Part shown: piece after piece, positions 1-63,075 of the stretch
Position numbering within the stretch: the first letter of the stretch is position 1
Layout: each line of letters begins with the position of its first letter
NCBI GenBank assembly: GCA_030272155.1
Contig: CP126197.1
Coordinates: 2,046,001-2,110,000 of the forward strand
Direction of reading: 5' to 3'
Length of the DNA: 64,000 nt
From: Tetradesmus obliquus
Taxonomy: Eukaryota; Chlorophyta; Chlorophyceae; Sphaeropleales; Scenedesmaceae
Notes under the pieces: generated by a model
Told to the model about the DNA's origin: nothing
What the model saw: the letters and a program-made list of their open reading frames with translations, nothing else
Database searches by the model: none
Program-made: the position numbers and the translations under genes

Positions 1-1482
1 CATCAACATTTTGGACAGTGCGCTGCTGCGCGCGTGATGCTTCTGATCGCAGACTCCCAAATCCTCAACCGCATGTCTCATGCTGCGTTGCTGTGCACCA
101 ACCGCATTGTTGCAGGTGCTGATGGCCACAAACCGCATCGACATCTTGGACAGCGCGCTGCTGCGCCCGGGGCGCATCGACCGCAAGATTGAGTTCCCCA
201 ATCCTTTTCTTACACTGAGCTGTGCTTGCACAATTCGCGTTGGTGCCTTCCTGATGGCCACCAAGTGCAAGGATGGAATGAGTCGCGCGCTGCTTGCTGC
301 TGCCTTCGTCTTTGAAATTGACCACCATTTGTTGACTGTCGCACGCTGCTGCACGGTGCACAGGTGCTGATGGCCACCAACCGCATCGACATCCTTGATT
401 CTGCGCTGCTGCGCCCGGGGTGCTTCTGAAAACCAACTTTGAATCCCCAAACCCTATGTCTCATGCTGTGCTGTTCTGTTGGTTTGCCGCATCCCTGCAG
501 GTGCTGATGGCCACCAACCGCATTGACATCCTCGACAGCGCGCTGCTGCGCCCGGGGCGCATCGACCGCAAGATCGAGTTCCCCAACCCCTCCGAGTCGT
601 CCCGCGTGGACATCCTGCGCATCCACAGCCGCAAGATGAACCTGACGCGCGGCATTGACCTGAAGCGCATCGCAGACAAGATGAGCGGGGCCAGTGGCGC
701 GGAGCTCAAGGCGTGCTGCACGGAGGCGGGCATGTTTGCGCTGCGCGAGCGGCGCGTGCACGTGACGCAGGAGGACTTTGAGATGGCAGTGGCGAAGGTG
801 GGTTGTGTCACAAGATTTGAGGTTGTCAGCTGTGGGTGTGTCTGTATGGGTGTTGTGTGTAGCTTGCCTCTGCTTGGGGCGTGTAGCACGTGACGCAGGA
901 GGACTTTGAGATGGCGGTGGCAAAGGTGGGTTTTGTTGTTGTGTGTATGTGGAGGGGCAGGGGAGGGGTGTCTGTGGGGCTTGCTTGTGCTTGGGGTTGC
1001 GCAGCAGGTGATGCAGGAGGACTTTGAGGTGGCGGTGGCAAAGGTGGGCTGTGTGGTTGTGTTGTTTGGGATTGCTGGCTGCAGGTGTGTCTGTGGGGAT
1101 TGCGTGTGCTGGTGCTGGTGGCAGTGGTGGTATGGCATGTCGAGAGGGCTTGTGGCGCTGCACAATCGTAGTGCAAACAAACACCAAAGCGGCTTGAATA
1201 AATATGAATCGTGTTAGGGTTTGCATGTGGTTGGTGGCGCTGTTGCACGTGCGTTGGGTTAGCAGTTGGCTATGCTGTGCACTCAGGGGTTCAAACAAAC
1301 AAAATCATTGCGTTGATGGGGTTGCACCACCCAGCTGTCGTCATCATTCCTGCAAGGCCTGCCATTTCATGACGCTGTACAGCTGCTGACGCTGGCCCCT
1401 GTCGTGCTTGGTTCTGCCGTGCTTGCAGGTCATGAAGAAGGACAGCGACAAGAACATGAGTGTTAAGAAGCTCTGGAAGTAG
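1..1482 (+). CDS. RPT6: 26S proteasome regulatory ATPase subunit 8 (RPT6), C-terminal exons, partial
   Basis: This is the C-terminal part of a AAA+ ATPase of the 19S regulatory particle, which unfolds ubiquitinated substrates and opens the 20S gate. The main exon is 501-797. It encodes the end of the AAA core ([17 protein letters not shown], with the arginine-finger region) and the C-domain ([44 protein letters not shown]). The last exon, 1429-1482, encodes [17 protein letters not shown] and a TAG stop. This matches the PSMC5/RPT6 C-terminus and lacks the HbYX tail of RPT2, 3 and 5. The N-terminal exons lie before the window. Truncated copies of the exon start lie at 1-50, 112-200 and 361-420. 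Copies of the exon end with its donor lie at 884-930 and 1004-1050. The identity is secure; which exon copies are spliced in needs transcript data. Confidence 0.93.
112..421 (+). repeat. Echo copies of the RPT6 exon start
   Basis: The sequence at 112-200 repeats the acceptor CAG and the first ~85 bases of the exon at 501, with a few substitutions. It then runs into unrelated sequence. A second, shorter copy at 361-420 ends at CGCCCGGGG. A third remnant is at 1-45. Each keeps a 3' splice-site-like CAG but not the rest of the exon. Confidence 0.85.
884..1050 (+). repeat. Echo copies of an RPT6 exon end with its splice donor
   Basis: Two copies of the exon tail encoding (V)[12 protein letters not shown], each followed by GTGGG, lie at 890-928 and 1006-1047 in the intron after the real exon end at 797. 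They differ from it at a few bases, so they are old enough to have diverged. Confidence 0.85.
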
Positions 1483-1517
1483 AAGGAGAACGCTGTGTTC
1501 TGACTGTGGTGCTGCAT

Positions 1518-1522
1518 TGTAA
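1518..1522 (+). terminator. TGTAA polyadenylation-type motif after RPT6
   Basis: TGTAA lies 36 bases after the RPT6 stop. TGTAA is the usual poly(A) signal in chlorophyte nuclear genes. It is a short motif, so the call rests on its position. Confidence 0.45.
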
Positions 1523-1826
1523 CATACAGTTGCTCTGTTTTTTTTGCCGGTGTGACTAGTACAATTGCCAGCTCTGCGACTTGAACGCCTGCGTATCTCT
1601 TGAATGTTCAGCTGCGGCTATTGTGGTTTCGTGCTGCCACCCGTATCCTTCAAAGATCGCAGCAAACAAGTATCTCTGGATTCGGTTCGGCGCCAAGTTA
1701 GCAGCGTCGCTGTCACAGCTGAGTCACACAAGTACCTGAAGTTTAGGTAGCTGTATTTAAGGTCGGATTTGGCCACCCATTGCATCCCACTGCTGTCCAA
1801 CCTGCGCGTCGCTGGCGGAGCCGATC

Positions 1827-2850: not shown

Positions 2851-2892
<42 letters not shown>

Positions 2893-3266: not shown

Positions 3267-4558
3267 GTCAGGCTCGCGCGCTGAAGCGGCCGCGCCTGGT
3301 GTGGACGCCTGCGCTGCACGCGCTGTTTGAGGAGGCTGTGGGCAAGCTGGGGCTTGATAAGGCCGTTCCCAAGACCATCATGCAGGTGAATGGTGCTATG
3401 TTATTATGTTATGTTATTATGTTATGTGGCATGAAGTGTGGTTTGTTAATGGTTTGGGCTGTTTGAGGAGGCAGTGGGCAAGCTGGGGCTTGATAGAGCC
3501 GTGCCAAAGACCATCATGCAGGTGACTGTGCCAAATCAATGAGTTGTACTTCATCACACTATATCGGACTATAACTGCTGCAGATGATGAACATGGAAGG
3601 TCTCACACAGATTGTTGTTCTTTCCCTGAGGCAGGTTCTGTAAGTAAAACGCAGCCTTGCAATGCGCCGTGTTTCACTGTCTTGCAGATGATGAACGTGG
3701 AGGGCCTCACGAGAGAGAATGTGGCCAGCCACCTGCAGAAGTACCGCCTGTCCCTCAAAAAGGGAGGCGAGCCGGACGGGGCAAAGCCCGCAGGCGCCAG
3801 CAGTGCAGCAGCAACAGCAGCAGAGGGCGGCGATGCCACCAACTCGGGCGGCGAAAAGACCCAGCAGCAGCAGCAGCAGCAGGATGAGGAGGCGACGGCT
3901 GGCGCGAGTGCTGCAGCTGCGGAGTCTGGGGATGGCGGCAGCGGCAGCTGCGGCGGTGGCGGCGGTTGCAGCAGCAGTGACGGTCAGGAGGGCGGCAGCA
4001 GCAGGAGGGCCAGGTGAGCGGGACTGGCTGTGGTGCTATTTGTGGCTCATTATTCTGTCCAGATCTGTGCGGTTAGTCGCTGCCGGGGCAGCAGCAGCAG
4101 TGATGTTCTGGAAGGCGGCAGCAGCAGGAGGGCCAGGTGAGGGACGCTGCTGCTGTGGTGCTGTCAGCTGGGGTTGCTGGTATCTGTGATTACGTGTTGC
4201 GAACTTTGAAAGATATGGTGGTACTAGCAGTGTGATTTGCAGTTGATTGCGAATGGCACATGCTATGACACAACGGGCTTGCATGATGTCTGCTGCGTGC
4301 GTTGTAAGACAGCCAATTGTGTGGGTTTTGTGGACATCAGCTTCAATCAGTCTGCGCTCCTGTTTGGAAGCTGAGCTTGTATGCTCTGCTGCTTGTCCCC
4401 GCAGGCCTGGCAAGAGCGCAGCTGGTGCGGATGCAGCAGCTGATGGAGCAGCGGGTGACACTGGAGCAGCATCTCAGCCTGCAAAGCAGCGGGAAGAGCA
4501 GCAGCAGCAGCAAGAAGCACAGGAGCAGCAGGCGCCTGCAGCAATGGACGCTGAGTGA
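1827..4558 (+). CDS. GARP/MYB SHAQKYF-class transcription factor, LUX/ARR-B-like
   Basis: The DNA-binding domain is split over two exons. 3272-3385 encodes KRPRLVWTPALHALFEEAV and AVPKTIMQ. 3688-4013 opens with MMNVEGLTRENVASHLQKY, the SHLQKY recognition helix of GARP proteins. The R-x-R-L-V-W-T-P-x-L-H and VPKTIMQxMNVEGLT spelling is closest to LUX ARRHYTHMO and type-B ARRs. No receiver domain is visible, which favours the LUX-like group, whose members act in the plant clock. Probable exons are 1827-~2601, 2786-2811, 2916-3010, 3272-3385, 3688-4013 and 4405-4558. The N-terminus is rich in Gln, Ala and His, and the C-terminus in Gln and Glu, typical of activation or low-complexity regions. 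Start: the first ATG of the long open exon. The stop TGA at 4556 follows a phase-consistent junction. The donor of exon 1 is uncertain (2602 or 2615). Confidence 0.85.
3459..3612 (+). repeat. Echoes of both exon ends flanking the GARP-domain intron
   Basis: The sequence at 3459-3530 repeats the tail and donor of the exon ending at 3385 (encoding FEEAVGKLGLD..VPKTIMQ). The sequence at 3580-3612 repeats the start of the exon at 3688, including its CAG acceptor (MMNMEGLT). Together they form a mirrored pseudo-junction inside the real intron. A third echo, of the 4013 donor, is at 4088-4140. Confidence 0.85.
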
Positions 4559-7230: not shown

Positions 7231-7266
<36 letters not shown>

Positions 7267-8257
7267 GTGGCAGCGCACCCCGTGTCGAGTTTTGATGCAG
7301 GCCTGCTGCAGGGCTTGTACAAGCGGGGGCTGATATACCTGGAGGTGCCTGTTGCTGCTGATGACAGGATCAGCTTGCCGCCACTCGAGGTGAGGCTGAG
7401 GCACACGAGTGATACCAGACAAATGTCTCACGCACCGTGTATTCTTAGCATTCCGGTTGCTTGCTGCGCATGATGTTTGGGCACAGTCTGGCGTGTTTGT
7501 TTGAATATTTGGAGGTGCCTGTTGCTGCTTATGACAGGATTAACTTGCCGCCACTCGAGGTGAGGCTGAGGGCCACGTGTGATGCCGAAGAGAATCAGAG
7601 CGGAGGGGTTAGATCAACTGGTGTGACACAAGAGAGAGTGCATGGTGTTGTGCGCTGTGATTGCGTGCACTACATGGCATGGTGCCTGATCAGCGCGGCT
7701 GTTTGTTGGCGTTGTGTGTCTTGAGCACCTGAAGAGTTGTGTCTGGCTTGCAAACTCTCGAGTGGTGCACTTCAGGGGCTGCAGGGCGTGCAGGTTTCAA
7801 AGCAACTGTTCAGAGTTGCAATGTGTCGCCATGCTTGGCCTGTCCAAAAGGCCTGCTGCTGCTACTCCTGCTTCTGCCGCTGCTGCTTCTGCTGCTGTGT
7901 CATGGCCAGGGCTTTGTGTCCAACAAAACCTCGGAGGCTGGCGACGAGTCAGTGGACCCATTTGAACCGCTGCTGTACAGCCTGTTCCTGTCCAACATCT
8001 GCTGCTGCTGCTGCTGCCACTGCTGCTGCTGCTGCTGCTGTGTCATGCCAGGGCTTTGTGTCCAACAAAACCTCGGAGGCTGGCGATGAGTCAGTGGACC
8101 CGTTTGAACCGCTGCTGTACAGCCTGTTTCTTGCAAACATCTGCTGCTGCTGCTGCTGCTGCTGCCCAGGGTTTCGAGTCCAACAAAACCTCGGAGGCTG
8201 GTGATGAGTCAGTGGACCCTTTTGAACCGCTGCTGTATAGCTTTGTTCTTGCAAACA

Positions 8258-8298
<41 letters not shown>

Positions 8299-9039
8299 GT
8301 CGCGGCCAGGGCTTTGTGTCAAACAAAACCTCGGAGGCTGGCGACGAGTCAGTGGACCCGTTTGAACCGCTGTTGTACAGCCTGTTTCTAGCCAACAGCA
8401 GCAGGCTGGATCAAGCCCGCCTGGCAGACATCCTTGGGGTGGAGCTGCGGCAGCTGCTGCTGGTGACGAGCTTGGCAATACGGCTGGGGTTTGCGAGCAA
8501 GCTGAGCCCTGGCAGCAGCGGCGAGGAGCCAGGTGGGGCGACAGCGGCAGCAACTGCTGTTTCTGATGCTTTGTTGAGGTAGATGCTTTGTCGTCATTGT
8601 GTGCGCATAGCAAAATGCGGCCGATGCAGCAAACAGGATCTGTGACTCAAGCGTGCGGCACTGCACATAGATCAAAGCATTCTTGGGGTGGAGCTGCGGC
8701 AGCTGCTGCTGGTGACAAGCTTGGCGACACGGCTGGAGTTTGCCGGCAAGTTGAGCCCCGGCAGCAGCGGGGAGGAGCCAGGTGCGGCGACAACGTGCAG
8801 CAACTGCTGTTTCTGACGCCTTGTTGAGGTATATGCTTTGTCGTCATTGTCTGTGAATAGCAAAATGCGGCCGGTGTAGCAAAACAGGGTCTGTAACGCA
8901 AGCGTACGGCACTGCACATGGCTCAAAGCGTCCTTGGGGTGGAGCTGCGGCAGCTGCTGCTGGTGACGAGCTTGGCGATACGGCTAGGGTTTGCCAGCAA
9001 GCTGAGCCCTGGCAGCAGCGGCGAGGAGCCAGGTGGGCC

Positions 9040-9071
<32 letters not shown>

Positions 9072-9186
9072 TGAATGACGTGATGTGAATACACACGTTG
9101 GTGTATTGGTGTTGCTGCACACGCACTGGTAGAGTAACAGTACACAAGTATCACATGCTCTGGCTTCTTCCTCTGTCTGATCTTTA

Positions 9187-9228
<42 letters not shown>

Positions 9229-9419
9229 GCTGCTGCTGCTGTTGCTGCTGCTGTTGCTGCTGCCGCTGCTGGTCTGAAGTACTTCAACAAAATGCACCTG
9301 CTGCAGCCACCCCTGGCCTGCCACCCCGCAGGAACCTCACCAGCAGCAGCCAAGGCATGGGCAGCCAGGTGCTGTCAGTCCCTGACAACACAGATGAGGC
9401 ACATGCTCTGACTCAACTT

Positions 9420-9478
<59 letters not shown>

Positions 9479-10444
9479 GCTGCTGCTGCTGCCGTTACCT
9501 TTGGCAACAATGATTGTCAGCCACCCCTGGCCTGCCAGCCCGTGCCGGCCTCACCAGCAGCAGCCAAGCCATGGGCAGCCAGGTGCTGTCAGTCCCTGAC
9601 AGCACCGAAGAGGCCTCTGGAGGCTCCCCCGTTGCTGCTGCTGCTGCCGGCGCTGCTGCTGCTGCTGCTGCTGCTGGCGGGGTGTGGAATGGCGCTGCGG
9701 ACAGTGGGGGCGTGGCGGTGGTGGTGGATGCGGAGACAACCTCATACCTGATGATGGGTGCGCTGTCGCCAGGTGAGCGGTCCATAGTGATAGCACATAA
9801 TGTGTGTTGCCTGCTCGCGTTTGAACTCTAAGGAGTGACTTGAGTATGCGTGTCTGTTTACCTGATGATAGGCGCGCTGTCGCTAGGTGCGGCTGTTAAA
9901 TCAATTCTTGCCTGCTGGCTAGTGTGCTTCGAGCAGTGTCCTGTGCTTTCACCTGTCTGTGGGCGGTGGTGGTGGATGCGGAGACAACTTCCTACCTGAT
10001 GATGGGCGCGCTGTCGCCAGGTGGGATACATGGACAGTCACTAATACCGTGCTGCCATCTATATGGAAGAGATATAAGAGTTCCGGCTGCTGCTCTTTTT
10101 GCGCTGCTTGGGCCAGAGCTGAAGCGGCACTTTGTAACGCTGTTTGAGGGCGGCCGCATGGTTTGTGAGTCTGCTGTGTTGGATGAGCTCATCACAGCGC
10201 TGCAATGCCCCTCGTTTTTCGCCGTCTACCTTTGGTACTGCAGTCTGCAGGGCTCAGGCACCACGCTCTCATCTTTTGAAGGCGGCCGCACTGCTGACGT
10301 TGACGCTTGCTGCCCTCCATGCGCTGTGCCATGTGTCGCAGGGCTCAAGCGGCACTCCGTCACGCTGTTTGAGGGTGGCCGCGTGGGTGGCGCTGCCGTG
10401 ATGATGAGCTCATCAGTGAGCCGGCATGTCACCAACTGCTGCTC

Positions 10445-10487
<43 letters not shown>

Positions 10488-10953
10488 CCGCCTGTGCTGT
10501 GCCGCAGGGTTGAAGCGGCACTCTGTGACGCTGTTTGAGGGCGGCCGCGTAGGCGGTGCTGCCGTTATGGATGAGCTCATTACTGAGCTGGCTGCATCAG
10601 CGGCAGCAGGCGAGTTCTTTGAGGGAGACATGGTGCAGGTGAGCGTTGGATGCGAGCTGTTGAAGACCACAACCCAACACGTACATAAGCTTCCGGCAAC
10701 TTTTCCAGCACAGCGGCAGCACTGCTGTTGGCAGCAGCAGCACTGGGGTGGTTCTTTGAGGGAGACATGGTGCAGGTGAGCTGCTCTAATACGCAGCAAG
10801 CCTGGATGTGATAGGCCCTCTTGTTGCCGTGCTGTCGCTGCTGTGCTGTCGCTGCTGTGCTGCGTCTGTGCTGATGCCCACAAAACAGCTGATGTGCCAC
10901 ATCCAGAGCCTGAGCACTCTGCTGTTATGCACCAACCAACCTGCTGCTGCTGC

Positions 10954-10991
<38 letters not shown>

Positions 10992-11331
10992 AATAACCCA
11001 CAAACAGCTGATGCGTCACATTCAGAGCCTAGGCATCCTGCTGGGCGTGGCGCGGTCAGCAGCAGCAGGCCAGGGCCAGGCGCTGGAGCTGCTGCGAAAG
11101 GAGAGCCTTGAGGGTGAGTAGGATATGGCACTGCTGCTGCTGCTGCTGCTGCTGCTTGCTTGCATCGCATGTACGCATGCAAGCAGGCACACACAATGCC
11201 AGCCGCATGTTCTGCTGCCAATCGCATGCAGATGCTGGCAACAGCTGCCACTGCTGTTTCAGTTCATTAGCAATGTGCATGCAGGCTTTCCGCACGCTCT
11301 GCCACTGATGACTCTGTGCACGAATACACTC

Positions 11332-11408
<77 letters not shown>

Positions 11409-12782
11409 GCCAGGCCTGGACCCGGAGAGCGCAGCCAAGGTGCTGTCCCACGCCTACACCTGCATCATCCCAACAGCACCATTACGCGGACCCTCCCTCC
11501 CCCTCAGCCCGTTTTCTCCCAGCTCCCCTACCCTATATGGCCCCAGTGCTGAGGCAGACTCCCCATGGCTACAGCTTGCGCTGTATGCTGCTGCTGCTGC
11601 TGGGCCGCTGAGTCTGGTGTTTGTGGCGGGCCAGCGGGTGTGGCGGCTGCCTGGGCAGCTGGAGGGTTGTACGCACGCGCTGCTGTGGGGGTGGGCTGCT
11701 GCTGCTGACGGCTGGGCGGCATCGCCGCTGCTGGTGGAAGGTGCGATGGCTTGTAACTGTTACGCAACTGTTATAATTTGGCAGTGTTGGTATCGTCAGG
11801 GCAGCTGGAAGGTTGTACGCATGCGCTGCTGTGGGCTGCTGCTGCTGATGGCTGGGCGGCTTCTCCGCTGCTGGTGGAAGGTGCGGTGGCTTTGTAACTG
11901 TTATGTAACCATTATTACTTGACAGTGTTATGTTAGTATTGTCAGGGCAGCTGGAGGGTTGTACGCGTGCGCTTCTGTGGGGGTGGGCTGCTGCTGCTGA
12001 CGGCTGGGCAGCGTCGCCACTGCTGGTGGAAGGTGCGGCGGCTTTGTAACTCTTACATAACTGTCATGGCTTGTCAGTGTTGTGTTGTATTGTGTGTAAT
12101 GTTGTTTGTGTCACAAGGGCCGCGCAAGTGCAGGTCTTGAGTGCTTCCAGCACGGCGAGTGTTCGTGCCGCGAGCTGGCAGGTGTGTGGTTTCAGCAGCA
12201 GGATGCAGCGGAGTTCAGCTGTCTCAGTGCCAGTGTTTTGGCCTCACTCTTCTAAGCGCCCCACTCATGTTGCCTCACTCCTTCTGCCTTCTCCTGCCCC
12301 CTGCGTCGACTGCTGCTTTTGCTTCCCCCTGCACCCTGTGCTGCACTACCCGCGCTCCACTGCTGCAAAACTGCAGGCAGCAGCCTGCTGTGCAGCCTCA
12401 ACGAGCTGCTGGCCAGGACTGCAGCCACAGCATTTCGTGCTATACTGTGGTGCTCCAGCTGTGCATGCACCGCACGGCAATGCCCTTTGCACACGTTGAT
12501 GCCCAGATAGCATGCCATGTTCCCACCCTGGTTCACCCAGTTTGCTTGACCTCTTCACCTCCTCCTGCACACTCCCTCGGCTTCTGTGCTTCCTCCTCCC
12601 GCTCCACTGCTGCAGGCAGCAGCCTGCTGTGCAGCCTCAATGAGTTGCTGGCCAGGACAGCAGTGCTGGTGCAGCCACTGGTGCACCTGCAGCAGCTGCC
12701 CAGCAGCAACAGTAGCAGCAGCAGCAGTGATGATGTGCCGCTAGTGGCGTTCATGGATGTGCCGCTGCCGTTGCGTGCAGCA

Positions 12783-12818
<36 letters not shown>

Positions 12819-13972
12819 GTGGCAGCTGCAGTTTCAGCAGCAACACCAGCGGCAGCTGCAGATGCTGCTGCTGCAGCAGCGGTAAGCGATCCTTTTGCTG
12901 ACTTGCTGCAGATGGGCGGCAGTAGCAGCAGTAACCAAGGAGATGCTGACACCGCAGCAGCAGCAGCAGCAGGTGCTGGTGAGGAGCTGCTGCCAGTGGA
13001 TCAGCAGCCTGGAACAGCAAAAGCCGCCGACAGCACTCCCCGCAGCAGCAGCACGCCTCACCCCCAGCAGCAGCAGCAGCAGCAGCAGCAGCACGAAGAT
13101 GGCAGCATCACTGTGCTGGCCGTTGATCGCCAGCAGGGTGGGCAGCTGCGGCGGCTGCTGCTGCCTGGCAACATCGTGGCTGCGCTGCAGCAGCTGCAGC
13201 TGACATCAGCCGTGGGCTGGCTGCGGCTGGTGAAGCTGCCCCCTGCAGGCCCCAGCGGCAGCAGCAGCAGCAGGGCTGCAGCCTCTGCAGGTGGGACACA
13301 CAGTACAGTCATGTGCATTGATGCTTAAGGACAGTGATAGTGTTGCATGCTGCCTGGGTGGCGTAGCTTGCCGTGTATGCTGACAGCACACGCAAGCGCA
13401 GTGCTGAGTACCACCCCGCATGTTGCTGAAGGCTGGATGTGCAGCGTCGCTGCCATCGCTGCAAGTGTTATACTGTACGTTTAGCACCAACCAGTGAAAC
13501 GCAGCTACGCTATTCAACTGGGCAACCACCAACTGAAGTGTCGCGCCGCGAGCCCTGCTTGCAACTACTAGTCGTACTCTCACGCTGCATGAGAATATTC
13601 GAACTTGCTGCTGCCTGCAGGGGGCGGCTGGGTGCCTCTGTCCCTCAACCTCCGGGTCCCGCTGTTCTGCCCCACACTGTGCCATGACGATGTGAAAAAA
13701 TGTAACTCTCACATCTATTCCATATGCTGCTGCCTGCAGGGTCTGGCTGGGTGCCTCTGTCCCTAAACCTCGGGGTGCCGCTATTCTGCCCCACGCTGTG
13801 CCAGCAAGTTTGCAGCAACATGAGCGCTGCGCAGTGCCTCACACCAAGCGGCAGGTCAGCATGGCGGGCAGCGCAGTTGCAGCTGCAGCAGCAGCTCTGG
13901 CAGCTGGTGGGACAGTTTGGCGCAGGCAGCGGCAGCAGCAGCAGCAAAGCAGTAGGGCTAGGCAACAAGCAG

Positions 13973-14006
<34 letters not shown>

Positions 14007-14700: not shown

Positions 14701-15179
14701 ATGCTCAGTGCAGCTGGCGCGCACGGGAGTAGCCTTGCTGCATCAGCAGGTGAGCAGCAGCCACCAGCAAGGATATGTGGCAGCAGCAGGCTGCTACAAC
14801 AATGCTGCACCTATGTTCCGCCTTGCGCGCGTCTACAATTTTCTTTAGTTGACCGTTGATGAAATGTATGTGCTGCTGCTGACCACAGGATGCAGCAGGG
14901 GCACGCTGCTGTACACTCCGATCAGCTGCGCATCCACCTCATGCGCTGCAACAGCAAGCACACCTTCAGCTGCTGCCGGCAGCATTAGGAGGGCACCCAC
15001 TGCCTCAAACAGAGCACATAGCAGTAACGCACACACAGCTGTAACAGCCAGGCGTACAGCAGCAGTGGCAGGTGCTGCAGCTGTGCTCGGACCGACTGGC
15101 AGCGCCTCAGCAGCAGAAGCAGCGCTGCATGCAGCAGACCCTTCGCTGTGGCTTGAAGACTTGCAGGACGAAGTTGACC

Positions 15180-15211
<32 letters not shown>

Positions 15212-15303: not shown

Positions 15304-15375
<72 letters not shown>

Positions 15376-18300
15376 GCCTCGCAAGCCCTCCAGAGGCAAA
15401 CTCAACACCAAGACACGCGGCAGACTGATGAAGCAGTATACCTCAGTGCTTGAGCAGTACGAAGCAGAGCACACCGACTGGCTGCATAAGCAGGAGCAGG
15501 AATTCCTGCAGCTTCTAGCCACAGGTGCTTCGCAGCAGGAGCTGCTGCAGCAAGAGGCCCGGCAGCAGCGGCAGCAGCAGCACCTGACCAGCAAATGGCA
15601 GCAGCAGTGGGGCCCGCCTGTGGCACGCACACAGCTGCTGCAGGCGGCGCAGCCGCGCAAGCAGCAGCAGCAGAATCAGCAGCAGAGCAGCAGCAAGCCT
15701 GGCAGCAGCAATGGCAGCAAGCGGCAGCTGTTCACTGGCAGCGATGCAGGCAGGCCTCAACAGCAGCTGCAGCAGCGGCCGGCGCCTGCGCGCCACAGCA
15801 GCAGCAGCAGCAGCCGCAGTACCGCCAGGTCTCGCCGGCCGTCTGTCTTTGACATACCTGACGACACGCCTGACCTTGTTGCGGCCTCGGCAGCTGCAGC
15901 AACTCGGGCAGCAGAGGTGCAGCGCTACAGCAACCAGGTTGTGGGTGCCACACTGGTGCTGAAGGCGCTGAGTCAGCAGCCTGTTGATAAAGAGGCACTG
16001 GATAAGCTGGAGATTGTGTTCCTGCACCTGGCACTGCCGAGGCTTGTGGAGTGGCAGCAGTACCACCTGCTGCCTACGCTTGTCGAGTGAGTGCCGTTGA
16101 CAGGGTTTACATACTCGGAATGACATGGAGAAGATAACCTAGGGCTTGCAAGTTGTCCTGTAGTCCTCAGCAGGGTCGCATGCGACAACAAACTTGAGCA
16201 TTGGACCCAGCAAATGCTACTTGTGCACAGTCAGCTGTTGAATGCCATCCTTGCTGTTGAGTGCCATCCTGCTTCTTGCCTGTCGCATCATTTACACTGT
16301 ATCTGTGTTCCTGCAGGTACCTGCTGGCGCGCCCCGACATGAACAAGCACACCTGCCGCATCTTCACCATCACTATCATCAAATGTTATCAACTAACTAA
16401 ATATTACTTTAAATTCTGCAGGTATCTGCTGGGGCGCCCAGACATGAACCACCACACCTGTGGGGCCATCTTCAACGCCTACGCGCTGGCCAACAGGCTG
16501 GACCTTGCACTGGCAACCTGGAATGAGCTCGCAAACAGAGGCTTTGACATTGGGCCCTTTGGCAGCAGTGCACTGATCAAAGCCTGCGCCCGGGCACGCA
16601 ACATCGGAGCAGCGCTGCAGGTTTGTTGCTGGCCCGACGGCGTGCATGCTTGTTTGCCTGCCTACTTGCGTGCGTGCATGCATGTTTGATGAATCATGAT
16701 CGTGTGCCTTGCTTGTTTGTCGCGTACTCTACCGTTCTGGCTGCAATGCGTCCTGCTGCGATTGATTGTATGACCGCAGGTGTTTGACCAGCTGCTGCTG
16801 ATAGCAATTGACTCATGTCATATCCTGCTGCTGCCGTTGACCGTTTGACTGCAGGTGTTTGACCAGCTGCTGCGGCGGCGTGTGAGCTTCAACGCCTACA
16901 CCTACAACTGCCTGCTGCAGCTGTGCTGCTCGGCGGGCCGCATGGACGACGCCCTGGCAGTGTACAACCTGCAGGTGCGCTGAGGTGCTGTGTCTGAACG
17001 TGCTGTGTCAATTGTCAAATGCAAGGTTCAAGATAGTTTGATTATTGATGGCAAGGTGTGTGTCACTGCATGACGACGCCCTGGCAGTGTACAACTTGCA
17101 GGTGCGCTGCAACGGGTGTTGGCTTCCCTGTATTGTTTAGACGCTTCTACTGCAGCGTGCGTGTAGTTGGATGGATGTGCAGATGGATGACGCACCGGCT
17201 GTACACACACTGCAGGCGCGGCGGCTTGGCTTCTTTTGGGAGGCTGAACCAGCGACAACCCAATCTGCTCTAAGTATCGGGATAGTTGACAACATGGACA
17301 ACATGGACAGAGAGAACCATCACAAGCACACGCTTGCTTGCATGCGTGCATGCTGGTTGTGACGGCGGCTGCGTGGTGTGTTCGTCGGCTCAGCAGTTGT
17401 GGCTGCTATCTCTCGCTCACCTGCCGCCCGCTGTGTCACTGCCTGTGTGCTGCAGCGGCTGGAGACTGAGCCGGCCAACCTTCCCGATGCCTTCACCTAC
17501 ACCGCCCTCATGCGTGGCGTGCTGGTGTCAGGCAGCGTGGAGCTCACACAGCAGGTGAGAGGGCTTGGGCTTAGGGTTCAGGTTCAAATGGAATTAGTTG
17601 TTGAGGATGAAGCGAAACCTAAACTGCAGTCGTGTGTGTCAGGCAGCGTGGAGCTCACACAGCAGGTGAGGGGGCTTGGGGCTTAGGTCTCCAGATTTTA
17701 AGTTTGTGGTCGAAGGGTTTAGCAACAGAACATGCACATGCACCATGATGCCATGCATGTGTTGTGTGCGGGCTCGTAGAATGTGCAGGCGCTGCGCTGC
17801 GCATCATGTTGCACACTGTTTGCAGCAGTTGCTGCAGCGCAGCACGGTGTGCTGAGGCCTGCTTGATGCTGTTCTCAGACACTCCACTTCTGTCCTTGCG
17901 CCCCTGGTTCATCAATCACTCACTGGGATGCCGCTGTTGCCTGTGCTGCTGCCTCCCGGCTCTTGCTGTGCTGCAGCTGTTTGAGAACATGCTTGAGGAT
18001 GGCGTGGCAGCAGACCCTCCGCTGTACTGCAACTTCATCAACGCAGCAGGCAGGGCAGGAAACCTGGGACTGGCCCGCTACCTCTACCAGCACATGATCC
18101 TAAGCCTGAACCTGGCAGCAGCCAGCAGCAGCAGCAGCAGCAGTGCGGCAAGCAGCCCAGCCAGCAGCAGCGAAGAAGAGGATCAGGAGCAGCAGCAGCA
18201 GCAGGGCAGCTTGCAGCACCCAGTGCGGCAGCAGCAGCAGCACAGCGGCAACGGCAGGGGTGCAGCAGCGGTTGCGCCCAACATGCTGACCATGGTCAAT

Positions 18301-23083: not shown

Positions 23084-26000
23084 GCTCGGTCGTGATCTGT
23101 GCCGGTGGCTTAGCAGCCGTTCCCGCCCCGCGCAGGTCCGGCACCGGCCCAGCAATGCAGGCAGGCAAATCCTTTGGCACAGCTGGCAGAATCGGCAGCG
23201 TCAGGTATGCCGGCAGCTGCAAGCCGTCCCTGGCTGTTATAACAACGGGCCGGGAAGCAGCCAGAGAGTAAGGCCGCAGCTCAGGCCGATCTTCTAGCAG
23301 CAGCACTGGCGGCCACATGCCTTGCCTGTACAAATACCAACTCGGGCTGCTGTTGCTGTTGCTGTAGCGCAGCAGTAGGGTTTGGCGGTCCTTGCTCCGC
23401 CCGGCCAGCTCGACTTCGAACCCGGGTTTGAACTCTTCGAGCCGCGTCCCGAGGGCTTTGAGCGCGGGGTCTATGACGGTCCACTGAGATTTATGGTAGT
23501 TGAAGGCCACCATTTGCGGCTCCCAAGTATCGGGGTCAAAAATAACGTCGTCCATGTCAGCGTAGGGGTTGCTGGCAATGCGGCGCAGCACTTTGGCACC
23601 TGGTTGGATGCTGATGGCTTGCACCTCCGTGGTATCCCTGTAAATAGGTTAAATGGTTTGCAGTCAGTTGGCGCCAAGGTGATGACGAAGAACCAAAGGT
23701 AGCAGATGATCGAGCACTGGTTCCATAGCTGCATCCGTGCTGCTGGAATCAGTGTGGAGGGAAGGAATGCGAGTGAGACAGTTGCGTCCAAGACAAGCTG
23801 CCGTCAAATCAAAGCAGCACAATCTGTTGGTCTCCTGCCCTGCTGCTGCTGCTGCTGCACCTGCGTCCATCTTCAAAGATCACAAGCAGCCCAATTTGTA
23901 CAGAACCATCCCAGAAACTGGCCTCACCTGCCGACTGAGCTGGCCACAAACAGCTGGTCGCCAGCCTTGTTGAAATCTAGGACCTGGCCGTCATCTTCAA
24001 ACCAAAAGCAACAAAATAACATGACAAGTATCGGCACTCACCTGCCCACTGAGCTGGCCACAAACAGCTGATCGCCAGCCTTGTTGAACCCTAAGACCTG
24101 GCCATCATCCCCAAAGCTCCAAGTGAAGAGCCGGCGCCAGCTGGAGGTGTTGTAGTTGCCGGGCTTGTCACGCACCAGCATGTACTTGCTGCCATCGCTG
24201 TTGTTGTAGCTCAGCACGCCCTGCACGCACAGCAATGTGGGAAGAGCAGATGCGTAAGTGCAGGAACGCAGAATTTGATTGCTGCCATCGCTGTTGATGT
24301 AACTCAGCGCGCCCTGCTCCCACAGAGGGAGAGGTTGCAGGAGCAGCAGCAGCAGCAGCAACAGCGGCGGCACGTGCATGCGCATCACGAGGCAGTGCAG
24401 CAAATAAAAGTCGATACGGTGCGACGAGGCGCTACATGGTGCCGCAGCAGCTGCCCGCTGCAACATGTAAAGTGCTACGTCAGCTCAAGCGCAGCTGCTC
24501 AGACCAAAGGAGGCCGTATTGAGGTGCGGCAGCAGCAGCAGCATTTCCAGTTTATTGTGTTACCTGTGTAGCTCACATGCCCTCCATTTCATCTTTTGTA
24601 TGTCACATAAAACACGGTCAATATACCACAACAATTCGAATTGCCGCACCTGCAGCGTAAAGTTGGCGTCAAAAAAACAAGCAGATGATGCGCCCTGCAC
24701 TTCTAATGTTGCTTTGCTGTACATGTACAACAGAGAAAGTAACAGATAACATACCAAAATGACAGCAGCACCTTCAGCGTGAAGTTGGAGTCAAAGTACC
24801 AGTAGATGATGGGACCAGGGTTGACCAGCATGCGCTCAACCTTGCCACTGTCAAGATCGATGCGGTGCAGGTCAAAGCGGGCTGGGTTGTCTTTATTCAT
24901 GGTGACATACACCTGCCGCGGGTGATCTTTGTCCCTGAACACCTCGTCGACCCGCACACCTGCAGCCACAACACAAGAAAAAGTGCAAGTTGTTGGCAGC
25001 CGTAGGCAACGCATTGTGCATGGAGCTCGCGCTCTTCAAACACCTTGACGGTGCGCACGCCTGCAACTACAAGCACAAGAAAGTGCAGCGGTTGGCAGCG
25101 GTAGGCAATGCTTTGTGCAAGGGCACGAACACCTGCCGCCGGTGCTCTTTGTCCCTGAACACCTCGTCGACGCGCACACCTGCAGCCACAACACAAGAAA
25201 AAGTGCAGTTGTTGGCAGCCGTGGGCAACGCATTGTGCATGGAGCTCGCGCTCTTCAAACACCTTGGCGGTGCGCACGCCTGCAACCACAAGCACAAGAA
25301 AGTGCAGCGGTTGGCAGCAGTGGGCAAACACACCGTGCACTGTGACGTACAACCGCCGCGGGTGCTCTTTGTCCCTGAACACTTTGTCGACGCGCACGCC
25401 TGCGGCCACGCACACCTGACAAGTGCAACAGGTTGGCAACAGTCAAGGGCACATATTCAGGGCCACATGCACCCGCCACAAATGCTCGCGGTCCGCATGC
25501 ATTCCGTTGCGGGCTTGCCTGCAGCTACACAGGCAGCAGTTGGCAAGGCAGATAACAGCAGCTATGAGAGGCCTGTTAGAAGTGCTGCATATGAAGCCCG
25601 TCCAGCGGAAGCACCAACCAAATGCACTGCTGCCTGCTGCTGCTGCATTTGCCTCTGACACTGCCAAACTACTGTCTTGCTGTGTGTGGCTGCGTGAGCT
25701 CACCTTTGAAAGATGTCAGGTCCTTCACCTTTGGCCGCTGCCCTGCCATCAGGCTTTGCAGTGGCACCAGGTACAGGTGGTACTTCTCGTCCCCGTCAGC
25801 ATCCTGCTGGTAGATGATGCCGCTGCCGTCCCACAGCCAGAAGTAGGCTGCAGCGCACAACCAGCAGAATGCACGTCAGATAGCAGCAACCAGACAGGTG
25901 CTTAAATTGCATTGCTGGTAGATGATGATGGAGCCGTCCAACCGCGTCCAACAGCCAGAAGTAGGCTGCTGCGCAGGAAAACAAAGCAAAGCACCACCAG

Positions 26001-27210
26001 CTTTCTGCACGCAGATGTGGGATGATGACGTGACTGGCTCGGATGGAGCTGGTTGCAGCAGGCAGGTGGCAGACACATAACGCAACACACAGACAGGCAT
26101 TTCGGGTGAGATGCTGGTAGATGATGGCGCTGCCGTCCCACAGCCAGAAGCAGGCTGCAGGGCACAAGCACGCACAGCGCACAATGCAAAGCAGGCAGAA
26201 TGTAGCAACTTCAATAGGGAGCCGGGCAACAGATGTACGTGTGGCAGACAACATGTGGTACTGCGATCGGTCGAGCGTGGCTGCTATGCATTGCGCAAGC
26301 GGCTGCTGTGAGGCCACTGGCATACACTTGCTGCTCCTTGTCCTTTCAAAGTCGTGACAGAGCGCCATGCAGATTCAGCAAATTTAGCAACGCAGCTGCA
26401 GCGTCCTGTACAAAAACGTGTCTCACATGTGACGCCGCGCTTTTTGTCAAATGTGACCTGCTTGTCGCCTGCAGTGCCCTCCGTTTCAAACAGGCCCTGG
26501 TGCTTGCCTGCCAAGCTGGCAAACCTGCTGGCTGGCGGCAGCTGCTTTATGAACACATTGTAGACGCTGCTGCCTTTCGAGGGGCCGACATATGCCAGAT
26601 ACTTGCCATCTGGGCTCAGCTGCGCAGATGAAGCAGTGCAGACAGGTGAAATAGAAGGTGCAGAATAAAAGGTACCAGCAAAAAGCGGTAATGAAACAGC
26701 ATTGATTGCTGTTACAACGGCAAGGACATTGATCCACATGCATGGTGCATGACTGAAAGGCATGCCAGAAAGAAGCAGCCACGTTGCACGCGATTGCGCA
26801 GAATGCTGTCTGTCCATGCGAGCTGGTCTTCCAGGCATCAAAAATCGCTTTCAGTGTTAGCGCCTACGTCAATGCTGACAGCACTAGGCAATGCTGCGTA
26901 TGGCATGGCCAAGCCTGCGGAACTGCCCCTGCTGCTGCTGCTGCTGGTGTTGTTGCTGTTGTTGCCGTCTAGTGGCGTCACCAGCTGCTGGTGTCACCCA
27001 CAGGTTCTCACACGTCCAGCTGCAGCTTACCGATGGGTTCGTGTAGTTAGCGGTGCCCATGAGCAGCGGCATTGGTATCAACGGCGGTAGGCCTGTCACT
27101 GCAGCTGCTTTGGCACCTGCTGCTGGCACCTGAGGAGCAGCAGCAGCACCAGCTGCTGCCACTGCTGATGCCACTGCCCATGCAAGCAAGATCGCAAGGA
27201 GCTGCATCAT
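21592..27210 (-). CDS. Secreted S9 family (prolyl oligopeptidase-type) serine peptidase
   Basis: The first exon (27031-27210) starts MMQLLAILLAWAVASAVAAAG, a clear signal peptide. The next begins LSPDGKYLAYVGPSKG, a propeller blade motif. Propeller exons include FWLWDGSGIIYQQDADGDEKYHLY and DEVFRDKDHPRQVYVTMNKDN. The alpha/beta-hydrolase part has PMVLLVHGGPWARDYWD, NRGYAVLQVNFRGSTGFGKR and GVGTMQQDLTDAVQWAI. It also has the nucleophile elbow GGSYGGYAAL (Ser), GANDPRV (Asp) and DEGHGW (His), the full catalytic triad in family order. It resembles acylaminoacyl-peptidase or dipeptidyl-peptidase-like S9C enzymes that cleave short peptides; the exact specificity cannot be told. The signal peptide implies the secretory pathway. 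Several exons are preceded or followed by multiple partial copies. Confidence 0.88.
23038..23083 (-). repeat. (CTG/CAG)15 coding tract in the S9 peptidase
   Basis: About 15 triplets read as poly-Ser in the minus frame between the propeller and hydrolase parts, an unusual position for a low-complexity insert in this family. Confidence 0.8.
24897..25440 (-). repeat. Echo array of the S9 exon start encoding GVRVDEVFRD
   Basis: At least four partial copies lie at about 24950-25015, 25120-25195, 25255-25285 and 25355-25410, upstream (in gene sense) of the full exon near 24790-24965. They encode variants of AGVRVDEVFRDKEHPR, each led by a CAG acceptor. Other copies encode AGVRTAKVFEERELH, so at least two diverged echo types alternate. 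Confidence 0.85.
25800..26165 (-). repeat. Echoes of the S9 exon start encoding AAYFWLWDG
   Basis: Copies of the acceptor plus AAYFWLWDGSGIIYQ occur at about 25920-25972 (variant AAYFWLLDAV) and 26108-26160 (variant ACFWLWDGSAIIYQ). Both lie upstream in gene sense of the full exon near 25705-25850. Confidence 0.85.
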
Positions 27211-60690: not shown

Positions 60691-61159
60691 GAGCTTCACA
60701 TTAGGCAAAAATACTTTATGCAGACCCGTCATGCGGATGTGCTTTGAGGCTGCCTTGCAGATAACGTCAGGCGCCAGTTCATGCAGCAAACCGATCATTT
60801 GTGCATGCCGCCATTGACAACAGCATATCACTGAGAGATCCACAGGTTCGCTGGGCACAGCAGCAACGCCATGCATCATGTGGCTACACTCTGTTTCAAC
60901 CCTGCCCAAAAGGCCTGTCCATGCATGCACGGATACTTGAAAAGATCATGAACACAACAGATCATCCAAGATGACATGCACCAGTGGCACCTGATGCGGA
61001 AACTCTCCTTTCATTGTCTCATTGCTGGTGCCGTTGGCGCTTGTTTGTTTGGAGCATAATAAAAAAGTGCCAAACAATAAAAAAAGCCTCTTCCCTTTTC
61101 TAGTCCATACAATTTTTCCAATGTGACGGGGGTGTGTACTCTAGAAAAACTTCTAAATA
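60691..61159. other. Spacer between the Rep unit and the Hint gene
   Basis: No gene is recognised. AT-rich stretches near 60590-60630 and 61058-61085 are compatible with gene ends. It contains the expected 3' UTR of the minus-strand Hint gene. Confidence 0.5.
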
Positions 61160-61654
61160 TCACATGATGCTGCCAGCCGGCAGCAGTGCCTGGGTTAGCT
61201 CTGAGGCCACTGCATGCTTCACTGCTGAGTGTGCGCGGAAGGCCGCTTTCATGCCAGCCGCCAAGGCATTGATGGCACCACTCTCATGCAGCCAGCGTGC
61301 TGCCCTGTCACCCACAACGCTGTACACCAGCTCGGCAACCTGGGCAACCTGCGGCAGCAAGTTCGGCAGCAGAGGAGCTGCTCAGAAACTGGAAACCACC
61401 TGACAAACAAGGCCGGTAACAGCTTCATGATCACAGCACGCTGCATGTCCTCATACAGCGATGTCCTCATACAGCACGCTGCATGTCCTCATACAGCGAT
61501 GTCCTCATACAGCACGCTGCATGTCCTCATACAGCGATGTCCTCATACAGCACGCTGCATGTCCTCATACAGCGATGTCCTCATACAGCACGCTGCATGT
61601 CCTCATACAGCGATGTCCTCATACAGCACGCGGCATGTCCTCATACAGCGATGT

Positions 61655-61703
<49 letters not shown>

Positions 61704-63075
61704 GCAAATGATACATGAGGACCTCACCTTGCGCATTGCCTCATCGGAGCCGAAGCTGCTGCTGTAGCTGCTGGGGGCAACTCCATCCACCACAGCATGG
61801 CCCTCCAGCGTCCACACCACAAACGCGCCAGCTTCGGCACGAATTTTGACATCGGTCACCTCACTCTGCACAAGGCTGCCTGTCTCACTGTCCACCACCC
61901 ACAGCACATGGCCTGGCTGGATGGCTTTGCCTTCCACTGCAATGCGCTGGCTCCAGGTTGAGGATGGGGAGGGTGCTGTGTAGGCGTAGTGGGATGAGGA
62001 GAGCTGCAGGCGGTGGCCACTGGCTGTGGTGAGAGTGAAGTAGCGCACATGACCTATGGGCAGCAAACGACGGCAGGCAGGCGCAGAGCATGGTGGAATT
62101 AGCAAAACAGGAAGCAGGCGAGCTTGGTAATTGTAGAAAAATGCCTTTTGTTCGGTAACGCCTGGCAACAGCACCCCCAGCCTTCAGCTCGTGTGTGTTT
62201 GTTGAGCATGTAAGGCTGCTTGGCCAGCTCCAAATACAGCACACACACCCGCAACACTGCCAAAAACAGCAGCAGCAGCAACATGGCGCAGGGCATGGCT
62301 GCACAACAATCATCACCCGGCCTGGCATACATCTGGGATTTCAGCCTCTGCACACACACATGTATACAGCATCTGGGGTGGTTGCAGGCAACTTCTTCCA
62401 CTGGCAAGTTTTCAAGCTACACGTTTTACTGCCTGAAGTAACGTGTATGCCAGCTGTAACCTGTGTGTGATGTGACTAGCAAGCTGGGCACATCAAAAGC
62501 ATGCGAGCCTGCTGCAGCAAATGCTCTTCTGAGCCTGATCGCCTACTTGACAGCGCGCACCTGTGTGCTGGTAGTGGGGCCTGTCGAATGAAACAGAACG
62601 GACGGTGTGCATGTTATGCCGTCGCAATGCGCACCTGTGTGCTGATAGTGGGGCATGGCGAAGACCTTGCTGAGGCCCAGAGAGCCGTCATCACGCACCA
62701 CCTGCGGCAGCAGGCGATACAGCATTTGAATTCTGTTATTTACCGCGTCGAGCTGCATTTGCTAGGCACTTTGATGCATCGAAAGCATAGCAAGTTGCAT
62801 GCACTCTGCAGGCAACATGTATGTTGTTGGGATGTGTCGCAAGGGATGCTCACTCAGCAACCGAATGTCCTCATCAACCGCGTCTGTTGCCACCAACGCT
62901 CCTGAAACCACGCTGCTGACGCCTATTCCCCGAACCGCAGTTGTCGCAGCAGCATGCAAGTGTGCAACAAGCCCTCACCTGTATGGTGTCACCCACGCGC
63001 ACAGCAGCCACCTCAACCTGCTCTAGGGCAGCTCCGCTGCTGGGCTGCCTCCACACACGCGCATGGCCAGGGAAG
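61160..63075 (-). CDS. Hedgehog/intein (Hint) domain protein, C-terminal exons
   Basis: The autoprocessing fold is seen over several exons. 62979-63075 encodes FPGHARVWRQP then VEVAAVRVGDTIQ; the phase lets the upstream exon supply the Cys of CFPG. 62635-62701 encodes VVRDDGSLGLSKVFAMPHYQ. 61728-62053 encodes HVRYFTLTTASGHRLQLSSS, GKAIQPGHVLWVV and GHAVVDGVAPSSYSSS. The final exon, 61160-~61377, is a helical tail (LLPQVAQVAELVYSV..GMKAAFRAHSAVKHAVASEL). Hint modules use an N-terminal Cys for an N-to-S acyl shift and cut the protein in front of them. Green algae have Hint genes without Hedgehog signalling. The N-terminal partner domain is not found in the remaining 0.9 kb. The (CTG)n run directly before the 63075 acceptor is the tract seen as (CAG)n at 63081-63150. 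Confidence 0.75.
61443..61654. repeat. 38-bp minisatellite, about 5.6 copies
   Basis: The unit is GCATGTCCTCATACAGCGAT then GTCCTCATACAGCACGCT, itself two related halves. It lies in the last intron of the Hint gene, directly beside a (CTG)n run. All plus frames stay open across it because 38 is not a multiple of three. Confidence 0.92.
61656..61702 (+). repeat. (CTG)15 tract in the last Hint intron
   Basis: It adjoins the 38-bp minisatellite. On the gene strand it is (CAG)n and sits near the 5' end of the intron, so it is not a 3' splice-site tract. Confidence 0.85.
62560..62600 (-). repeat. Echo of a Hint exon end and donor
   Basis: In gene sense, the GGCCCCACTACCAGCACACA segment followed by GGTGCGCG near 62565-62587 copies the end of the exon at 62635 (ATGCCCCACTATCAGCACAC plus AGGTGCGC). 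It lies about 70 bp into the following intron. Confidence 0.75.

What the first reader, a model, noticed from the sequence alone, without database searches (positions are those of the whole stretch)
1..63075. Window-wide 'exon echoes': introns carry diverged copies of adjoining exon ends with their splice signals
At least 25 junctions in seven unrelated genes show it. An exon tail plus donor is repeated downstream in the intron, or an acceptor plus exon head is repeated upstream. Copies cross the splice site, are usually 40-150 bp, differ by a few percent, and recur up to four times. This is seen directly. It suggests frequent tandem duplication across splice sites, which would lengthen introns and supply decoy or alternative exons. 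Tandem duplication of AGGT-containing segments is a known model of intron gain, but not at this density. False duplication from assembling diverged haplotypes must be excluded.
Basis: partly seen in the sequence, partly recalled or inferred. Interest (0 to 1): 0.9.

Follow-up and report, generated by a model that had tools for sequence, protein, structure and literature searches.

The report
Exon-end copies lengthen algal introns
In a green alga (Tetradesmus obliquus) many introns carry worn copies of the neighbouring exon end together with its splice signal, usually about 120 bases apart; the copies look real, occur in many parts of the genome, account for most of the extra intron length in the genes checked, and have no established explanation.

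Summary
The window is Tetradesmus obliquus: an OEZ86 protein matches it at 1059 of 1059 aligned codons. In three genes with protein-verified exons (22 introns, 44 junctions), 20 of 20 local repeat families cross a splice site; CDS-sparing random placement gives 3.4±1.7. Two further genes bring this to 25 junctions and 37 echoes. In 190 kb of random genome, 28 of 48 families cross a predicted exon edge (10.0±2.4 expected). Direct local pairs number 218, inverted 1, shuffled 0. Spacing peaks at 110-139 bp, with a second group at 207-249. Intron length fits 287 + 0.95 × echo span (r 0.93); echo-free introns average 294 bp.

Two classes exist. In 11 of 52 junction families the whole unit is duplicated. 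In 41, homology covers ~45 bp of exon but stops ~8-10 bp into the intron, at the splice signal. There the exon-derived part looks too young for the vanished intron part.

Best reading: recurrent ~120-bp tandem duplication across exon ends, the exon-derived part then kept alike by exon-templated gene conversion (inferred; a mosaic test did not show it). Rivals: copying limited to exon end plus splice signal; echoes under constraint. Artefact and introners are disfavoured.

The parts
60..204 (+). acceptor echo of RPT6 exon 501-797 (offset about -385, 56 bp of intron side also align)
361..426 (+). acceptor echo of RPT6 exon 501-797 (offset about -137)
501..797 (+). RPT6 exon; source of head and tail echoes
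   Evidence: 26S proteasome subunit 8 match; next-best genome hit only 52% identical
878..936 (+). donor echo 1 of RPT6 exon end 797; 887-925 is an in-frame 39-nt AG..GT piece
1004..1110 (+). donor echo 2 of RPT6 exon end 797; 1005-1043 is an in-frame 39-nt AG..GT piece
3458..3528 (+). donor echo of GARP/MYB exon end 3385 (offset 136)
3579..3606 (+). acceptor echo of GARP/MYB exon start 3688 (offset -104)
4091..4162 (+). donor echo of GARP/MYB exon end 4013 (offset 123; exon end from the HMM)
7510..7586 (+). donor echo of FAM91 exon end 7389
7898..7997 (+). acceptor echo 3 of FAM91 exon start 8310
8041..8140 (+). acceptor echo 2 of FAM91 exon start 8310
8166..8258 (+). acceptor echo 1 of FAM91 exon start 8310
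8678..8930 (+). donor echo 1 of FAM91 exon end 8532, full 249-bp unit
8931..9037 (+). donor echo 2 of FAM91 exon end 8532
9304..9400 (+). acceptor echo of FAM91 exon start 9521
9859..9889 (+). donor echo 1 of FAM91 exon end 9772
9962..10023 (+). donor echo 2 of FAM91 exon end 9772
10114..10202 (+). acceptor echo 2 of FAM91 exon start 10508
10338..10425 (+). acceptor echo 1 of FAM91 exon start 10508
10732..10781 (+). donor echo of FAM91 exon end 10638
10877..10924 (+). acceptor echo of FAM91 exon start 11008
11799..11944 (+). donor echo 1 of FAM91 exon end 11740, full 146-bp unit
11945..12093 (+). donor echo 2 of FAM91 exon end 11740, full unit
12336..12424 (+). acceptor echo of FAM91 exon start 12616
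13606..13684 (+). acceptor echo of FAM91 exon start 13740
16311..16366 (+). acceptor echo of PPR exon start 16422
16753..16798 (+). acceptor echo of PPR exon start 16855
17068..17109 (+). donor echo of PPR exon end 16974
17636..17687 (+). donor echo of PPR exon end 17554
23923..24001 (-). donor echo of S9 exon 24042-24220
24279..24325 (-). acceptor echo of S9 exon 24042-24220
24643..24690 (-). donor echo of S9 exon 24772-24959
24960..25438 (-). array of four acceptor echoes of S9 exon 24772-24959 (offsets 101, 220, 320, 440), alternating two diverged types
25945..25975 (-). acceptor echo 1 of S9 exon 25704-25847
26112..26170 (-). acceptor echo 2 of S9 exon 25704-25847

Best explanation
Short tandem duplications with a preferred unit of about 110-140 bp arise repeatedly in this genome. 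When a unit spans an exon-intron boundary, the exon-contiguous copy keeps coding and the extra copy of exon end plus splice signal (the echo) becomes part of the intron, lengthening it by one unit (shown by anatomy). Repeats of exon and echo can recombine and add further units, giving arrays (inferred from the full-unit families). With time the intron-derived part drifts beyond recognition. The exon-derived part and splice signal stay alike because the exon is held by selection and keeps overwriting the echo by gene conversion (inferred, not shown). Duplications lying wholly in introns have no such anchor and fade, which leaves the junction-crossing ones as the visible class. The DNA event is most likely repair of paired staggered single-strand breaks with fill-in (inferred from known repair biology).
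For: Direct orientation (218 direct pairs, 1 inverted, 0 shuffled). 20 of 20 families in verified genes and 28 of 48 in the random sample cross an exon edge. 11 of 52 junction families retain the whole duplicated unit. Full-unit homology is usual in families of >=3 copies (block >=0.9 of spacing in 20 of 33, four of the 33 being minisatellites) but rare in two-copy ones (2 of 49). The 110-139 bp peak (38 of 82 families) is seen in both; block and spacer lengths are inversely related (Spearman -0.56, n 37; the 60-180 bp limit may contribute), as if one unit length were fixed. Tail echoes lie next to the donor and head echoes next to the acceptor. Intron length = 287 + 0.95 × echo span. Echo substitutions look near neutral: in the 15 single-echo families mismatches to the exon at codon positions 1/2/3 are 17/245, 15/247, 38/246; exon-only changes in multi-echo families are 2/0/15. 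This dates the exon-derived part at ~6.5% in the echo lineage, so an equally old intron part would be ~13% diverged and alignable, as copied intron parts are elsewhere (1-27% mismatches). In 37 of 41 truncated families homology ends within 30 bp of the splice site, where constraint on the true copy ends. One truncated family keeps weak residual similarity in its spacer (24772, p 0.003).
Against: The mosaic (switch) test in families of >=3 copies found no significant patchiness: 15 comparisons, lowest p 0.031, so gene conversion has no direct support. 19 of 23 spacers show no residual homology at p<0.05; of the four that do, 8532 and 797 are full-unit families and 9521 is CTG-rich, leaving 24772 alone among truncated ones, as expected if the intron part had usually never been copied. 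No purely intronic duplication was found in the verified genes, although a random process should give some. Repair of paired nicks does not by itself predict a length peak. All 36 echo pairs keep GT or AG at the aligned place (read), somewhat more than neutral decay predicts (~87% each); at least one sample echo, L022:7625, seems to have lost AG.
Confidence: 0.47

Rival explanations
1. Splice-anchored copying: an unrecognised process copies just the exon end plus the splice signal (about 20-100 bp of exon and 3-30 bp of intron) and inserts it mostly 75-170 bp away with unrelated filler, for instance by break repair tied to transcription or splicing.
For: In 41 of 52 junction families homology stops a median of 7.5-10 bp inside the intron but ~45 bp inside the exon (Wilcoxon p 7e-8). 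19 of 23 spacers have no detectable homology to the expected flank, and the two that I searched are unique in the genome. Some exon sides are almost unchanged while the intron side beyond 8-27 bp does not align (17554: 0 of 30 mismatches; 16974: 1 of 34; 16855: 0 of 19).
Against: Full-unit tandem arrays occur at the same kind of junction with the same spacing peak; block and spacer lengths compensate; I know of no mechanism that respects splice signals in DNA (recall).
Confidence: 0.25
2. Functional echoes: the copies are kept by selection at nucleotide level as decoy, recursive or alternative splice sites, so exon-derived part and splice signal persist while the rest of the intron decays.
For: 36 of 36 echo pairs keep the invariant GT or AG (one search read); about 1% expected at 6.5% divergence if pairs were independent, which they are not. 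Two RPT6 echoes are in-frame 39-nt AG..GT pieces.
Against: The codon-position pattern is near the 1:1:2 of an unconstrained copy beside a constrained exon (17/15/38). Copies are partial exons. Identical decoy donors should be harmful (inference). Four T. obliquus proteins lack echo-derived residues. At least one sample echo looks to have lost its AG.
Confidence: 0.15
3. Plain neutral tandem duplication without homogenisation; the junction bias is only detectability, because an exon-anchored pair diverges at about half the rate of an intron-intron pair.
For: Such a bias must exist; where the intron part was copied its divergence (1-27%) is of the order of third-position divergence.
Against: Truncated families have an intron part far more diverged than their third positions (38/246 in single-echo families) allow; 20 of 20 against 3.4 expected exceeds a twofold bias; 45.7-57 kb has no repeat family except the one in a repeated element.
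Confidence: 0.08
4. Assembly artefact: false duplication from diverged haplotypes or reads.
For: Not excluded by reads here.
Against: Most units are 75-250 bp, nested and up to five copies, with unrelated spacers and third-position-biased differences; local repeat families in 15 of 19 random loci; mean intron length (474 bp over 22 introns) agrees with the published mean for another strain's assembly (462 bp).
Confidence: 0.02
5. Introner-type transposons inserting next to splice sites.
For: Dense and widespread in the genome.
Against: Echoes are specific to each exon; three own-genome DNA searches (two spacers, one five-copy array) returned only themselves (that search skips very common words).
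Confidence: 0.03

Closest known systems
Intron gain by tandem duplication of a coding segment with a proto-splice site (Drosophila cases in PMC2891723, passages seen)
   Same: Tandem duplication of coding sequence with splice signals; one copy ends up intronic.
   Different: Here an intron already exists and each duplication adds a second donor or a second acceptor; no new intron with donor in one copy and acceptor in the other.
Small tandem duplications from staggered breaks with fill-in (PMC8355091, passages seen; Schiml et al. 2016, seen only in its reference list)
   Same: Direct, local, short duplications, described there as common in genomes.
   Different: No splice-site relation in the passages seen; one tested overhang there was 43 bp; a 110-139 bp peak with a second group near twice that is not explained by it.
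Tandem exon duplication and mutually exclusive exon arrays (recalled)
   Same: Arrays of exon-like sequence inside introns, up to five copies in the S9 gene.
   Different: Copies are partial exons and leave no trace in the proteins aligned.
Introner elements (PMC9860276, one passage and the abstract start seen)
   Same: Widespread reshaping of introns.
   Different: Introners are dispersed families that create introns; echoes are private to each exon and enlarge existing introns.
Symmetrical stwintrons in Hypoxylaceae (PMC8469720, abstract start in a listing only)
   Same: Nested splice signals in one intron.
   Different: Echoes are not complete internal introns; the 61-bp inner piece of the MYB intron resembles one but is unproven.

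Membership tests
Tandem-duplication intron gain (AGGT model) | Duplicated segment supplies the donor in copy 1 and the acceptor in copy 2 of a new intron | tested here: not met
   In the 24 junction families, donor echoes carry a second donor and acceptor echoes a second acceptor, inside existing introns.
Tandem-duplication intron gain (AGGT model) | Direct local repeats with splice motifs inside the repeated block | tested here: met
Short tandem duplication (staggered-break type) | Two adjacent full copies of the unit in direct orientation | tested here: inconclusive
   Met in 11 of 52 junction families; in 41 only the exon-side part is recognisable.
Short tandem duplication (staggered-break type) | Formation through paired nicks and fill-in | not testable with these tools
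   Needs mutation-accumulation or strain data.
Introner | Near-identical copies at many unrelated loci | tested here: not met
   3 of 3 own-genome DNA searches returned only the query itself; only these three were tried.
Tandem or mutually exclusive exon array | Copy of the whole exon with both splice sites | tested here: not met
   No block covers a whole exon; exon side is a median of 47 bp in the 20 truncated window families.
Concerted evolution (gene conversion) between exon and echo | Mosaic similarity among copies | tested here: inconclusive
   15 comparisons, lowest p 0.031, not significant for that many tests.
Concerted evolution (gene conversion) between exon and echo | Copies within a strain closer to each other than to orthologous copies | not testable with these tools
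   No DNA of another strain was available.
Functional alternative exon | Coding constraint on the copy | tested here: not met
   Single-echo families 17/15/38 mismatches at codon positions 1/2/3, near the neutral-copy expectation.
False haplotype duplication | Long duplicated stretch carrying flanking sequence on both sides | tested here: not met
   In the junction families, local blocks of at most 358 bp; neighbouring exons are not duplicated.

The most novel reading that the evidence does not exclude
A previously undescribed, still active process in Tetradesmus copies exon ends together with their splice signals into the adjoining intron at preferred distances (~120 and ~240 bp), either by splice-junction-anchored DNA copying or by continual exon-to-intron conversion, and is the main cause of this species' long introns.
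Probability: 0.25. Interest if true: 0.9.

Novelty: new variant of a known kind. Interest (0 to 1): 0.74.

Why it matters
How introns grow is a long-standing question with few direct traces. Here the growth steps seem legible: each echo adds about one unit, subtracting the echo span brings long introns back to the length of echo-free ones (268 against 294 bp, 14 and 8 introns), and the ~287-bp baseline lies within published means for four other green algae (230-302 bp), while the overall mean (474 bp) is close to that published for T. obliquus (462 bp; Table 1 of PMC5966456, passage seen). If homogenisation is confirmed, exons act as conservation anchors for intronic DNA, which would affect intron annotation, splice-site prediction and tests of intron conservation. 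The preferred spacing offers a handle on the repair or chromatin process behind short tandem duplications.

Tried and rejected
Self-training of a simple exon HMM diverged and was dropped; fixed-parameter versions were used. One search counted codon positions with a flaw (self-alignment at short offsets) and ended in an error; its numbers are superseded. One search failed on import. Strong coding constraint on echoes, first suggested, weakened once single-echo families were counted alone. The mosaic test for conversion was negative. The test for decayed homology in spacers was mostly negative (its combined Fisher p of 0.002 is driven by 8532, 797, 24772 and 9521). Internal repeats in 240 homologous proteins (the listed best 120 of each of two searches), sought as traces of echoes in relatives: none at the thresholds used. 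None of the ten paper searches listed a report of exon-end echoes; the library lacks most subscription papers. L020 (all N) was dropped before the counts. Echo density differs between loci, and I found no cause. I therefore lowered the best explanation to 0.47 and raised splice-anchored copying to 0.25.


Full report
Source and gene models. The window is G000:C7:2046001-2110000 of a 104.66-Mb, 17-contig genome. A protein search with a draft of the window's S9-peptidase gene returned OEZ85_012870 of Tetradesmus obliquus. A second search with FAM91 pieces returned OEZ86_007659, which matches the window at 1059 of 1059 aligned codons; two OEZ85 proteins match at 689 of 701 and 661 of 676 codons. 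The window is therefore T. obliquus, most likely the strain of the OEZ86 annotation, and OEZ85 another strain (inference from identity). Spliced alignment gave exons for FAM91 (12), five PPR exons (four introns used) and S9 (8), all in open frame. Pfam supports the identities. RPT6 rests on PDB matches; the next-best genome hit is 52% identical, and its last exon seems to lie near 1441 (peptide recognised from recall). The OEZ86 protein fuses FAM91 and PPR, whereas P0121 ends FAM91 at 14170.

Is it there, and beyond chance? Self-comparison after masking repeats of period up to 12 gave 218 direct pairs within 700 bp in 25 ten-kb stretches (longer minisatellites included), 1 inverted pair, and 0 in one dinucleotide shuffle of each stretch. 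In the three verified genes (22 introns, 44 junctions, 10,434 bp of intron) the pairs form 20 families. Each has a copy crossing a junction; none is purely intronic or purely exonic. Placing each family at random while sparing the coding sequence gives 3.4±1.7 crossing, maximum 11 of 20 in 5000 trials. With RPT6 (two junctions) and the GARP/MYB gene (three), whose edges rest on homology, consensus and the HMM, I count 25 junctions and 37 echoes. Tail echoes follow the donor and head echoes precede the acceptor. Of 35 window families 24 are junction families; four are minisatellites, two lie in a repeated element and five are unassigned.

How widespread is it? Of 100 random 10-kb stretches drawn, 20 were obtained and 19 were readable. 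They hold 48 families in 15 loci. 28 of 48 cross an exon edge predicted by an HMM that recovers 37 of 50 verified edges; circular shifts give 10.0±2.4, 0 of 2000 as high. The HMM may sometimes take an echo for an exon, which would inflate this count; the verified genes do not have that weakness. Five more families overlap an exon without crossing and 15 do not overlap one; by eye, without a control, at least six of the non-crossing truncated families also end at a GT or AG. Families per locus range from 0 to 8, so the trait is patchy. Of 11 side loci, five (L006, L008, L030-L032) have local repeats and six do not.

Anatomy. Over 82 families (sample plus window, the 49-bp minisatellite left out, other minisatellites kept) the nearest-copy spacing lies at 110-139 bp in 38, with a second group at 207-249 bp in 12. 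Two classes exist (52 junction families, 24 in the window and 28 in the sample). In 11 the whole unit is duplicated, intron part included. In 41 homology is truncated: the exon side has a median of 47 (window) or 43 bp (sample), the intron side 7.5 or 10 bp; the intron side is at most 30 bp in 37 of 41, the exon side in 5 of 41 (Wilcoxon p 7e-8; sample alone 1.6e-4). Full-unit homology goes with copy number: block at least 0.9 of spacing in 20 of 33 families of three or more copies (four of the 33 are minisatellites), but 2 of 49 two-copy families. In two-copy families whose block is shorter than the spacing, block and spacer lengths are inversely related (Spearman -0.56, n 37; limiting spacing to 60-180 bp may contribute), as if unit length were set first.

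Intron length. 14 of 22 verified introns carry echoes and average 578 bp; the other 8 average 294 bp. Subtracting the echo span leaves 268 bp. Length = 287 + 0.95 × echo span, r 0.93. Part of the correlation is built in because an echo must fit in its intron; the slope near 1 and the matching intercept are the informative parts. Published mean intron lengths are 462 bp for T. obliquus UTEX 393 against 230-302 bp for four other green algae (PMC5966456, Table 1, passages seen); the 22 introns here average 474 bp.

Clock. In the 15 single-echo families exon-echo mismatches at codon positions 1, 2 and 3 are 17/245, 15/247 and 38/246. In multi-echo families, columns where only the exon differs are 2/0/15 and columns where echoes differ among themselves are 18/21/39. 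This is about the 1:1:2 expected of a near-neutral copy beside an exon drifting at synonymous sites, and not what two coding copies would give. It puts the echo lineage at about 6.5% change, so an intron part duplicated at the same time should be about 13% diverged. Where the intron part was copied it shows 1-27% mismatches and aligns. In truncated families it cannot be aligned. Of 23 spacers tested against the flank they should match, four reach p<0.05: 8532 and 797 (full-unit families), CTG-rich 9521, and 24772 (p 0.003). So in truncated families the exon-derived part looks younger than the duplication, or the intron part was never copied.

Explanation. I favour recurrent tandem duplication of ~120-bp units followed by homogenisation of the exon-derived part. 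It accounts for the shared spacing, the two classes, the stop at the splice signal (where constraint on the true copy ends), the persistence of junction-crossing pairs and the lack of intronic ones. Shown: direct repeat structure, junction association, spacing peak, intron-length accounting, near-neutral substitution pattern. Inferred: gene conversion and the break-repair origin. Against it: the mosaic test was not significant (15 comparisons, lowest p 0.031), and only one truncated family keeps a trace of the expected decayed intron part. Splice-anchored copying fits the truncated class without conversion but not the full units. Selection on echoes is hinted at by 36 of 36 retained GT/AG, where about 1% would be expected at 6.5% divergence if the pairs were independent, which they are not; at least one sample echo looks to have lost AG.

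Known kinds. Intron gain by tandem duplication, short tandem duplications at staggered breaks, introners, exon arrays and stwintrons each share some features and fail others (membership table). Passages were seen in PMC2891723, PMC3296678, PMC8355091, PMC9860276, PMC7590803, PMC7955037 and PMC5966456; PMC8469720 was seen as an abstract start in a listing. None of the ten paper searches listed a report of exon-end echoes. I could not examine relatives' DNA, so whether the trait is special to Tetradesmus is open.

Noticed in passing
58396-60222 +: ORF with Replitron HUH endonuclease and Replitron C-terminal domains: a Replitron transposon in this alga.
   Followed up: no
35150-39790 -: Long minus-strand ORFs, one with a Herpes_ori_bp match (PF02399); looks like an integrated virus-like element (inference). 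No local repeat family was listed between 35 and 40 kb.
   Followed up: no
about 30.1-31.25 kb and 51.7-52.9 kb: Two similar copies of an element (similar ORFs), each holding three units spaced about 114 bp, the same spacing as many echoes.
   Followed up: no
32750-34470: 49-bp minisatellite of about 31 copies, the inner ones at 95-99% identity to the reference; all three minus-strand frames stay open over more than 500 codons.
   Followed up: no
887-925 and 1005-1043: Two RPT6 tail echoes are each bounded by AG and GT, are exactly 39 nt and stop-free in frame; could be cryptic microexons.
   Followed up: partly
3386-3687: MYB intron holds a donor echo and an acceptor echo enclosing a 61-bp GT..AG piece with a branch-point-like ACTATAAC; a possible ancestral short intron or stwintron-like arrangement.
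   Followed up: no
5638-19320 +: The OEZ86_007659 protein fuses FAM91 and a PPR gene, while P0121 ends FAM91 at 14170; likely annotation fusion.
   Followed up: partly
L009-L028: Repeat families are unevenly spread (0 to 8 per 10 kb); L017 and L024 have 10 and 9 predicted exons and no family. Cause unknown.
   Followed up: no
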